Source: Aquihabitans sp. | GTDB taxonomy: Bacteria; Actinomycetota; Acidimicrobiia; Acidimicrobiales; Iamiaceae | DNA length: 59,985 nt | NCBI GenBank assembly: GCA_025353965.1 | Contig: JANXNS010000221.1 | Location: forward strand, 1 to 59,985 | Direction: 5' to 3' | Shown: positions 57,141 through 59,985 of the stretch, piece after piece | How the letters are laid out: every line of letters begins with the position of its first letter | Position numbering within the stretch: the first letter of the stretch is position 1 | Position numbers and translations under genes: made by a program | The notes under the pieces: generated by a model | What the model was told of the DNA's origin: nothing | Databases searched by the model: none | Seen by the model: the letters and a program-made list of their open reading frames with translations, nothing else

Positions 57141-58856
57141 TTACGGGACCGAAGGAACCACCATGCCGTAGGGCAGTTCGAGACGGTGAGAAGCCATGAG
57201 GTCGCGGTTCGCGAGCAGGCCATTGGTGGGGCCGTCGGCGGCGATCCGACCACCGTTCAGCACCACCGATCGAGGACACAGCTCAAGCGCAAGGGCGAGA
57301 TCATGGGTGACCACGAGGGTGGTGACTGCCAGCCCGCGGACCACCTCCACCAAATCTCTGCGGGAGGCCGGGTCAAGATTGGCGGTGGGCTCGTCCAGCA
57401 CCAACACCTCCGGGTGCATGGCCAAGACGCCCGCCAACGCGGCCCGACGACGTTCTCCCAGGCTGAGCTGATGCGGGGCACGATCGGCCAAGTCGGTCAG
57501 GCCAACCACCTCGAGTGCGGCGGCAACGCGGGCCTGGAGCCCGTCACCGACCAGGCCCTGGGCCGCCGGGCCAAAGGCAACGTCGTCGCGCACTGTCGGC
57601 AGGAACAGTTGATCGTCCGGGTCTTGGAACACCAGGCCGACCCGGCGGCGCACATCCACCAGGTTGGGTTTGGTCACCGGCGTACCACCAATGGCAATCG
57701 TGCCCGCCGAGCGATCCAAGGCGCCCACCAAATGCAAGACGAGCGTGGTCTTGCCGGACCCATTGGGTCCGAGAATGGCCACTCGCTCGCGGTTGGACAC
57801 CGTGAGGTCGACGCCGGCCAATGCCACCGTGCCATCAGGCCAGGTGTGACGGAGTCCGGTGATCTCCACTGCTGGCGCGTTGCGATCCGGCGAGGGCGGC
57901 GCGCCTAGCCGACGCCCGAGCCCAACCCGGGGCCGCTCCCGTTTTTCCGCCGCTCGGGCCGCCGACTGATTGGCGGCCCGACGGGCCCGCCAACCGCGCG
58001 TGGCCTGATCCGGCGGGGCCAACGACAACGGCGTGCCCACTTTGTCCTCGAAACCGGGGAGCCGCACCCGGTAGGCACAGACATCGCAGTTCATGCGGAC
58101 ATCGCCCTCACGCGCCTCCCGCTGGCGCTCCACGACCAGGGCCGCCAACCGCTGGTCGATACCGAGGTGAGCGGCCATGGTGACCACAACATCGGGATGG
58201 TGGATCGCCCACGTCTCCGCCTTCTCACCAATGCGCTCCACCAAGACACCGGCAAACAAGAACAACGGAAGGACCGTGATATCGGTAGCCCCGAGGAGCC
58301 GACACCGTTCCAACGCCTGATCCAGCGAGGGAGCAGTCATGGCCTGAAACGCGGGCTCGACCGTGCCCAGCGCACGGCCATCGCCCAGGAGCCGCACCAG
58401 CTTGACCTGGTCCGCGCAGGCATCGGGGTCGGTTGAGCCGCGCCCAATCACCACGACAGCGGTGGTTTCTGCGGGCTTGGGTTCCCCTTGGGAATCGCGC
58501 ACCCGGGCTTCGGCCACATCGAGCACCGCCGGGTGGACCCCTAGGTCGCGTGCCAGGCGGAACTGCACGTGGGGATGGCGCCGACGGGCCCGGTCGAGCA
58601 CCGCCGGCCCATCGTCTTTGAGGTGACCGGCGCCGAACAAGACATACGGCACCGCAACAATGTCCGTCGCTCCATCTGCAACCAGCGCGTCTACCGCCTC
58701 ATCGATCGGTGGGTCGGCCAACTCCAGAAATCCGCCACCAACCAATTGATCGACTGCGGCCACCCGGACCATGTCCAACAATGCGTGGAACTCCTCCGCG
58801 GCCCGCGGATCGCGACTGCCATGACCGATGAGAACCAGCCCCGGCTTGGTCGTCAC
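57141..58856 (-). CDS. fusion: sirohydrochlorin cobaltochelatase (CbiX) + ECF cobalt transporter ATPase (CbiO)
   Basis: N-half VLIGHGSRDPRAAEEF...MNCDVCAYRVRLPGFEDKVG; C-half GPNGSGKTTLVLHLVG, LSLGERRRAALAGVLAMHPEVLVLDEPTANLD; single uninterrupted ORF. Confidence 0.9.
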   Translation of the reverse strand: MTTKPGLVLIGHGSRDPRAAEEFHALLDMVRVAAVDQLVGGGFLELADPPIDEAVDALVADGATDIVAVPYVLFGAGHLKDDGPAVLDRARRRHPHVQFRLARDLGVHPAVLDVAEARVRDSQGEPKPAETTAVVVIGRGSTDPDACADQVKLVRLLGDGRALGTVEPAFQAMTAPSLDQALERCRLLGATDITVLPLFLFAGVLVERIGEKAETWAIHHPDVVVTMAAHLGIDQRLAALVVERQREAREGDVRMNCDVCAYRVRLPGFEDKVGTPLSLAPPDQATRGWRARRAANQSAARAAEKRERPRVGLGRRLGAPPSPDRNAPAVEITGLRHTWPDGTVALAGVDLTVSNRERVAILGPNGSGKTTLVLHLVGALDRSAGTIAIGGTPVTKPNLVDVRRRVGLVFQDPDDQLFLPTVRDDVAFGPAAQGLVGDGLQARVAAALEVVGLTDLADRAPHQLSLGERRRAALAGVLAMHPEVLVLDEPTANLDPASRRDLVEVVRGLAVTTLVVTHDLALALELCPRSVVLNGGRIAADGPTNGLLANRDLMASHRLELPYGMVVPSVP

Positions 58857-59641
58857 GCGAACACCCCAACCAGGAGTACAACCGTGGCCAGCGTCGCCGG
58901 AACCGCGGCCCAGACCCACTGCCGACCGGTTGCCCCCGGAGACGAACCAACCCCGACCGGAGCGAGGACCAACGGCCCCGAACCAGGGCCCGCAGAACGC
59001 ACGGCAACCGACGTGGCCAGACGCTCGGCTCGGGCCGCGCCCTGCACGAACAAGGTGCCCAGGCTCCGAGAAACCGCCCGCCAAGTGTCCGCCCGCCCCG
59101 GACTTCCCCTCAACTCCGCGGCCAACCGGACCCGGGCCGCCTCCGCCCGCAACACCTCAACCTGGCGGGCCGACAAGGCAACCAAATCACAGAACCAAGC
59201 AGGCACGCGTAGCCGAGCCAAGCCCCGGACCAGTTCTGTTGTGGTGGTCGAAGCGGCCACGACCGACACCGCCACTACACCAATGGTGGCCTTGGACAGA
59301 ACCCCAAACGCAACGGTGAGGCCGGGCCGGGAAAGCGTGAAACCAGCTAGCACCTCAACCCGCGGGGGACGGCCGAAAATGGCGTAGGTCACCGCTAGGG
59401 CCAGCACCGGAATCTCGAAGACCACGCGCGTGCCCAGCGTGCGCAACGGAACCAAGGCCACGACGGCAACCGTCAGCACCACCGTGGCGTGAACCGCGAA
59501 CGCCCACGGCCACTGCGGCGGGGTGAGGGCAACTGCCATCAGAAACGCGACCAGGGCCACCACCTTCACCTCGGGCGCCAGACGAGTGAGTGGCGACTCC
59601 AAGCGATCACCGGCGGGCTGGGATCCATGGGCGGAACTCAT
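58853..59641 (-). CDS. cbiQ: ECF transporter T component (CbiQ-like)
   Basis: Multi-TM, LTRLAPEVKVVALVAFLMAVALTP...LPVPAWF-type coupling region, AELRGSP; overlaps CbiX-CbiO start. Confidence 0.85.
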   Translation of the reverse strand: MSSAHGSQPAGDRLESPLTRLAPEVKVVALVAFLMAVALTPPQWPWAFAVHATVVLTVAVVALVPLRTLGTRVVFEIPVLALAVTYAIFGRPPRVEVLAGFTLSRPGLTVAFGVLSKATIGVVAVSVVAASTTTTELVRGLARLRVPAWFCDLVALSARQVEVLRAEAARVRLAAELRGSPGRADTWRAVSRSLGTLFVQGAARAERLATSVAVRSAGPGSGPLVLAPVGVGSSPGATGRQWVWAAVPATLATVVLLVGVFA

Positions 59642-59985
59642 CGACGGCCACCCTCGCCGTGATCCACCGTCTCGCTCTGGTCGGCCGATTCCTGGTCGGC
59701 CGATTCCTGGTCCGCCGGTACCTCGGCTGGCGTCCGGGCCAGGGTTAGAAGGTCCGGACGGAGACGCATAATGGTGGCCACGATGCCCGCGGTGAGCAGC
59801 GCCTCGATCACCGCAACACAGCGTGGGCCCCACCGAGGGTGGCCACCACGGTGGCCCGTGACACCACATCGGTCCCACCCACCACCAACACCGCGGCAGC
59901 GGACAATCCTCCGGCCAGCGCGGCCATGGCTGCAGCCACACCGGCAACGGCCGCGAACCGGTCGGTCCGGCGGCCCATCAACGGC
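59638..59985 (-). pseudogene. cbiM: CbiM-like ECF substrate-specific component, C-terminal part, frameshifted or split
   Basis: PLMGRRTDRFAAVAGVAAAMAALAGGLSAAAVLVVGGTDVVSRATVVATLGGAHAVLR* then +1 frame AVIEALLTAGIVATIMRLRPDLLTLARTPAEV... Confidence 0.7.
59679..59708. repeat. 15-bp tandem duplication in the CbiM tail
   Basis: GGTCGGCCGATTCCT x2. Confidence 0.8.

What the first reader, a model, noticed from the sequence alone, without database searches (positions are those of the whole stretch)
57141..58856. Natural fusion of cobaltochelatase CbiX with cobalt-transport ATPase CbiO
One ORF of about 571 codons carries a complete CbiX-type chelatase (ending in the CDVCAYRVRLPGFEDKVG tail) followed by a ~60-aa basic/Ala-rich linker and a full CbiO/EcfA ATPase with Walker A, signature and Walker B motifs. 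Import energisation and metal insertion into sirohydrochlorin would be on one polypeptide, which raises the possibility of Co2+ channelling from transporter to chelatase. I do not recall this as a described architecture.
Basis: partly seen in the sequence, partly recalled or inferred. Interest (0 to 1): 0.68.

Follow-up and report, generated by a model that had tools for sequence, protein, structure and literature searches.

The report
Cobalt importer ATPase fused to cobaltochelatase
In some actinobacteria the enzyme thought to put cobalt into the vitamin B12 ring is built into the same protein as the motor of the cobalt uptake pump, a conserved arrangement I found described nowhere, which suggests that cobalt may be handed over where it enters the cell.

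Summary
Confirmed and extended. Window 57141-58856 (minus strand) is one 571-codon ORF: a long-type CbiX chelatase (both PF01903 halves, His12/His78, MNCDVC motif), a 54-residue Arg/Ala-rich linker, and a complete CbiO ATPase. It is no assembly error: the same one-frame fusion occurs in 20 further actinobacterial genomes, four of them single-contig. In one family all 16 CbiX-bearing genomes sampled have it (15 complete, one cut by a contig end). The linker is under purifying selection (dN/dS 0.12). The gene follows cbiM and cbiQ with a 4-nt overlap, behind cobN-chlID-cobI-cobM-cbiETG/cobJ-cbiC, and is the genome's only CbiO. Unfused relatives keep CbiX alone in the B12 operon, usually with a His-rich tail; in the fusions linker and ATPase replace that tail. 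Trees allow one origin. Best reading: CbiX is tethered, two per transporter, to the cytoplasmic face of the CbiMQO cobalt importer, favouring cobalt in a chelatase class that lacks metal specificity. Channelling is inferred, not shown. CobN co-occurs and CbiD is missing in several carriers, so when cobalt is inserted is open. New variant of known families; no description in the literature searched.

The parts
57141..58856 (-). cbiX::cbiO fusion gene, GTG start, 571 aa
58035..58856 (-). CbiX long-type chelatase domain (residues 1-274; His12 and His78 as the presumed catalytic pair)
   Evidence: Pfam PF01903 x2; genome search with PF01903; motifs; folded in the AlphaFold2 model
58077..58094 (-). 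MNCDVC, an MXCXXC motif as in the 4Fe-4S site of B. megaterium CbiXL
   Evidence: literature
57873..58034 (-). 54-residue Arg/Ala-rich linker replacing the His-rich tail of stand-alone CbiX; dN/dS 0.12 against G003
   Evidence: pLDDT below 50 at residues 252-322
57144..57872 (-). CbiO/EcfA-type ABC ATPase domain (residues 329-571) with Walker A, Q-loop, signature, Walker B and H-loop
   Evidence: Pfam, NCBIfam, motifs, best fold match CbiO of CbiMQO 5x3x/5x41
58853..59641 (-). cbiQ, ECF T component; start ATG at about 59641 is inferred; 4-nt GTGA overlap with the fusion gene
   Evidence: PF02361 E 3.7e-19; TIGR02454
59638..59985 (-). 3' part of cbiM with an apparent 1-nt frameshift near 59814; the 5' part ends contig C198, which shares 19 nt with this contig end

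Best explanation
The gene encodes a two-function subunit. Its C-terminal half is the ATPase of the genome's single CbiMQO-type cobalt importer. Its N-terminal half is a long-type CbiX sirohydrochlorin chelatase on a flexible basic linker. Because CbiMQO uses two CbiO copies, each importer would carry two chelatases at its cytoplasmic face. The proposed mechanism is proximity: incoming Co2+ is offered to a chelatase class that does not itself discriminate well between Co, Ni and Fe, so position supplies the metal choice that the active site lacks. The linker and ATPase take the place of the His-rich tail that, in stand-alone CbiX, has been proposed to store and deliver metal. Shown here: the architecture, its conservation, linker selection, operon context and sole-CbiO status. 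Inferred: assembly with CbiM and CbiQ, chelatase activity, and any local supply of cobalt.
For: Domains and motifs intact. One-frame fusion in 21 genomes, four of the others single-contig. Linker dN/dS 0.12 against G003, close to CbiX 0.11 and CbiO 0.09. cbiM-cbiQ lie directly upstream and B12 genes precede them. It is the only CbiO-like gene at E 1e-40 here, in G701 and in the L066 and L067 genomes, each with one CbiM. Fused CbiX is one side of a branch (SH-aLRT 85-87) and one origin of fused CbiO is not rejected. Stand-alone CbiX tails have a median of 5 His in 24 residues; the seven fusions compared have 0-2 His in the first 60. Both domains fold in AlphaFold2 and the ATPase matches CbiO of CbiMQO. 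Class II chelatases mostly lack metal specificity and CbiMQO is 1:1:2 (PMC7689651).
Against: No biochemistry. CobN and ChlID head the same operon and CobN is present in all seven carriers tested, so cobalt could be inserted late by CobN. CbiD was not found in this genome, G003, G701 or the L067 genome. Some unfused CbiX proteins also lack the His-rich tail, so its loss is not unique to fusions. A GTG at residue 273 preceded by GAGG could allow a separate CbiO to be made. No complex was modelled.
Confidence: 0.55

Rival explanations
1. Operon-streamlining fusion: two neighbouring cobalt genes merged and persisted because fusion fixes co-expression and stoichiometry, with no effect on cobalt flow.
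For: The genes are functionally linked, and other B12 genes here are fused too (cbiE-cbiT-cbiG-cobJ in one 830-aa ORF; cbiC-cbiX in another family). No evidence of channelling exists.
Against: Long retention across distant actinobacterial families with a selected linker suggests some benefit, though co-expression could be that benefit.
Confidence: 0.27
2. The CbiX domain does not make cobalt-sirohydrochlorin for B12 but serves siroheme synthesis or acts as a cobalt reservoir, while CobN-ChlID inserts cobalt late.
For: CobN present in all carriers tested, cobN and chlID in the same operon, CbiD missing in four of seven. Sub-threshold CobG matches in about 600-aa frames look like sulfite/nitrite reductases needing siroheme (this reading is my inference).
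Against: No carrier has a CobG match over the family cut-off. The gene sits with cobalt transport and B12 genes, and a second small CbiX homologue (contig C61) could serve siroheme. CobN and CbiX also coexist in Frankia (PMC4531530).
Confidence: 0.13
3. The ORF is read as two products in the cell, through internal initiation near Val273 or proteolysis in the linker.
For: A GTG with upstream GAGG at residue 273; low-confidence, probably flexible linker.
Against: That GAGG encodes part of a motif also conserved in unfused proteins, so it may be incidental; linker sequence beyond it is conserved between G000, G003 and G063.
Confidence: 0.04
4. Sequencing or assembly artefact joining two genes.
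For: The window genome is a 264-contig draft and the neighbouring cbiM has an apparent frameshift at the contig end.
Against: The same fusion in 20 other genomes, four of them single-contig, and a linker under purifying selection.
Confidence: 0.01

Closest known systems
CbiXL, long-type sirohydrochlorin cobaltochelatase (Bacillus megaterium type)
   Same: Two CbiX halves, catalytic-type histidines in the N-terminal half (His12/His78 here; His14/His79 there), MXCXXC motif after the second half
   Different: Linker and CbiO ATPase follow in place of the His-rich C-terminal tail
CbiO of the cobalt ECF importer CbiMQO (PDB 5x3x, 5x40, 5x41)
   Same: 41-44% identical over the ATPase, all ATPase motifs, next to cbiM and cbiQ
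   Different: Carries a 274-residue chelatase plus linker at its N-terminus; TIGR01166 score 196.5 bits, below the family cut-off of 211.8
CbiX-CbiC bifunctional protein (NCBIfam NF004449/PRK05782)
   Same: A CbiX chelatase fused to another B12-pathway protein
   Different: Partner is a biosynthetic mutase, not a transporter ATPase

Membership tests
CbiXL chelatase | Two tandem CbiX (PF01903) halves | tested here: met
   Two stretches, 166.5 bits, cut-off 22
CbiXL chelatase | Catalytic histidine pair in the N-terminal half | tested here: met
   His12 in LIGHGSRD and His78 in GAGHLKDD; second half reads GRGS (compare PMC7689651)
CbiXL chelatase | MXCXXC motif | tested here: met
   MNCDVC at 255-260
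CbiXL chelatase | His-rich C-terminal tail | tested here: not met
   No His in the 60 residues after the motif. The tail is dispensable for the reaction in B. megaterium and absent from some unfused homologues, so it is a typical rather than an essential feature
CbiXL chelatase | Inserts Co2+ into sirohydrochlorin | not testable with these tools
   Needs an enzyme assay
CbiO / cobalt ECF A component | ABC ATPase with Walker A, signature, Walker B and H-loop | tested here: met
CbiO / cobalt ECF A component | NCBIfam TIGR01166 (cbiO) cut-off of 211.8 bits | tested here: inconclusive
   196.5 bits here, the family's second-tier score; the fused CbiO of the L065, L066 and L067 genomes pass at 216.6-219.1 bits
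CbiO / cobalt ECF A component | Encoded with CbiM and CbiQ | tested here: met
   CbiQ adjacent, CbiM across the contig join; intact in G003 and G063
CbiO / cobalt ECF A component | Energises Co2+ uptake in a CbiMQO complex | not testable with these tools
   Needs a transport assay
CbiX-CbiC bifunctional protein | CbiC mutase domain in the same chain | tested here: not met
   No CbiC match in the fusion; cbiC is a separate gene in the operon

The most novel reading that the evidence does not exclude
A membrane-anchored import-and-insert machine: Co2+ passes from CbiMQO to the tethered CbiX without equilibrating with the cytosol, so that metal specificity of the chelatase comes from the transporter, possibly with chelatase state feeding back on ATPase activity.
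Probability: 0.25. Interest if true: 0.82.

Novelty: new variant of a known kind. Interest (0 to 1): 0.6.

Why it matters
How a chelatase with little metal selectivity receives scarce cobalt rather than iron or nickel is an open question in metal biology. A conserved physical link between a cobalt importer and the chelatase makes direct hand-over testable: express the fused and the split forms and compare cobalt insertion at limiting metal. It also offers a natural scaffold for B12 production strains.

Tried and rejected
Assembly artefact: rejected by independent genomes. Stand-alone neighbours with a stop at the linker: none seen. Recent single-species fusion: rejected, it spans several lineages. 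Cobalamin riboswitch over the operon: no Rfam match at gathering threshold in the window or in seven loci. CobG as marker of the late pathway: only sub-threshold matches, probably sulfite/nitrite reductases. Several long CbiX-bearing frames in other genomes (e.g. L157, L158, L238): mostly chelatase-type matches alone in the NCBIfam scan; probably overlong open frames at high G+C. Plasmid collection: no record covering 80% of the query.

Full report
OBSERVATION. The minus strand of window 57141-58856 holds one uninterrupted reading frame of 571 codons. Its GTG start overlaps the stop of the upstream gene as GTGA, and the same overlap is seen in G003, which supports this start and translational coupling. 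Pfam finds CbiX twice and ABC_tran once. NCBIfam's best matches for the C-terminal half are cobalt/ECF ATPases, and none of the 25 models shown spans both halves. The expected active-site and ATPase motifs are intact.

NOT AN ARTEFACT. The nearest relative with the gene, G003 (single 4.9-Mb contig), has the same uninterrupted frame at 85% identity. A phylum sample added G701, a single-contig genome. A sample of G701's order found 16 genomes with a strong CbiX match, all in family f125 and in five genera. Fifteen carry CbiX and CbiO in one frame; the sixteenth is cut by its contig end inside the linker. That makes 21 genomes with the complete fusion; L255 and L256 gave identical results and may be near-duplicates. 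Pfam confirmed both domains in eight of them. Single-contig carriers are G003, G701, G965 and G1049.

LINKER. Between G000 and G003 the 54-residue linker has dN/dS 0.12, against 0.11 for CbiX and 0.09 for CbiO. dS is about 1, so these are approximate. The linker is coding and constrained. Its start (KVG[TLM]P[LI]SL.P, then a run rich in Arg) is shared by all carriers examined.

WHAT THE FUSION REPLACED. Stand-alone CbiX homologues share the MNCD.C.YR..LPG.E motif and mostly end in a short His-rich tail: 52 distinct tails, median length 24, median 5 His, 35 with at least two. In seven fusions compared, the first 60 residues after the motif hold 0-2 His. In B. megaterium CbiXL this extension is not needed for cobalt insertion and was proposed to store and deliver metal (PMC7689651). 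Some unfused proteins also lack it, so the correlation is suggestive only.

SURROUNDINGS. Upstream is cbiQ. The contig ends inside cbiM. The missing 5' part is at the end of contig C198, which shares an exact 19-nt end overlap with this contig at the matching codon of cbiM. C198 carries, in order, cobN, a ChlID-type cobaltochelatase subunit, cobI/cbiL, cobM/cbiF, a SUMT-like methylase, a cbiE-cbiT-cbiG-cobJ multidomain gene, cbiC/cobH and a second SUMT-like gene. The operon thus runs from cobN to cbiX::cbiO; the join is inferred. G003, G063 and G701 have the fusion beside cbiQ and near cobI/cobM. In most unfused relatives CbiX sits near cobI, cobM and cbiD with no cbiMQO matches in the fetched stretch. 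Several relatives without CbiX have an ordinary cbiM-cbiQ-cbiO set.

SOLE ATPASE. In this genome, G701 and the L066 and L067 genomes there is one CbiM match and one CbiO-like match at E 1e-40, the fused one. G003 has a second, unfused set. The fused ATPase must therefore serve the importer in several carriers if the importer works at all; this is inference from gene content.

ORIGIN. In the CbiX tree the fused proteins form one side of a branch (SH-aLRT 87 with 7 rows, 85 with 21; below the program's 95 mark). In the CbiO tree, one clade is not rejected (p-AU 0.62 and 0.57). A single old fusion with later inheritance or transfer is the simplest reading but is not proven.

STRUCTURE. AlphaFold2 gives mean pLDDT 77.9 and pTM 0.50. 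The two domains are confident and 252-322 is below 50. The relative placement of the domains is therefore not informative. Foldseek's best PDB match is CbiO of CbiMQO. phmmer relates the N-terminal half to a sirohydrochlorin ferrochelatase, 6jv6.

MECHANISM. From PMC7689651: CbiMQO assembles 1:1:2, and most class II chelatases appear to lack metal specificity. Combining these with the architecture, each importer would hold two CbiX domains at its cytoplasmic side, raising the chance that incoming cobalt meets this chelatase. Proximity follows if the complex assembles; faster or more selective insertion is the testable inference. True channelling is a further step with no evidence yet.

CAUTION ON THE PATHWAY. 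CobN is present in all seven carriers tested and in three unfused relatives. CbiD was found in only three of seven carriers. CobG matches are all below the curated cut-off. Whether cobalt goes in early through CbiX or late through CobN cannot be settled from sequence. Coexistence of CobN and CbiX is known in Frankia (PMC4531530).

NOVELTY. The cobalt review and the Ni/Co comparative-genomics paper do not mention this fusion in the passages searched. The library covers open-licence papers only, so an earlier description elsewhere is possible. CbiX fused to CbiC is a named precedent for CbiX fusions (NF004449). I rate this a new variant of known families: a new domain architecture with a specific, testable functional suggestion.

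Noticed in passing
window 59800-59830, minus strand: The 3' part of cbiM shows an apparent 1-nt frameshift relative to G003, about 170 nt from the contig end; sequencing error or true lesion not distinguished.
   Followed up: partly
window 59967-59985 and contig G000:C198 end (L247): Exact 19-nt overlap between the two contig ends inside cbiM; the contigs are very probably adjacent.
   Followed up: yes
L160:7831-9432 and L161:8298-10013: In another family of the same order, CbiC (N-terminal) and CbiX (C-terminal) are fused in one frame, the reverse order of the named CbiX-CbiC fusion.
   Followed up: partly
L242:6461-8953 (contig G000:C198): One 830-aa frame holds CbiE, CbiT, CbiG C-terminal and CobJ domains.
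   Followed up: no
contig G000:C61 (L146:11964-12515); G003 counterpart L148:8942-9337: A second, small CbiX-like protein, possibly a siroheme chelatase; its context was not decisive.
   Followed up: partly
G000, G003, G701, L067 genome: CbiD not found although other B12 ring-synthesis genes were seen in this genome, G003 and G701; a replacement enzyme or a late-cobalt route is possible.
   Followed up: partly
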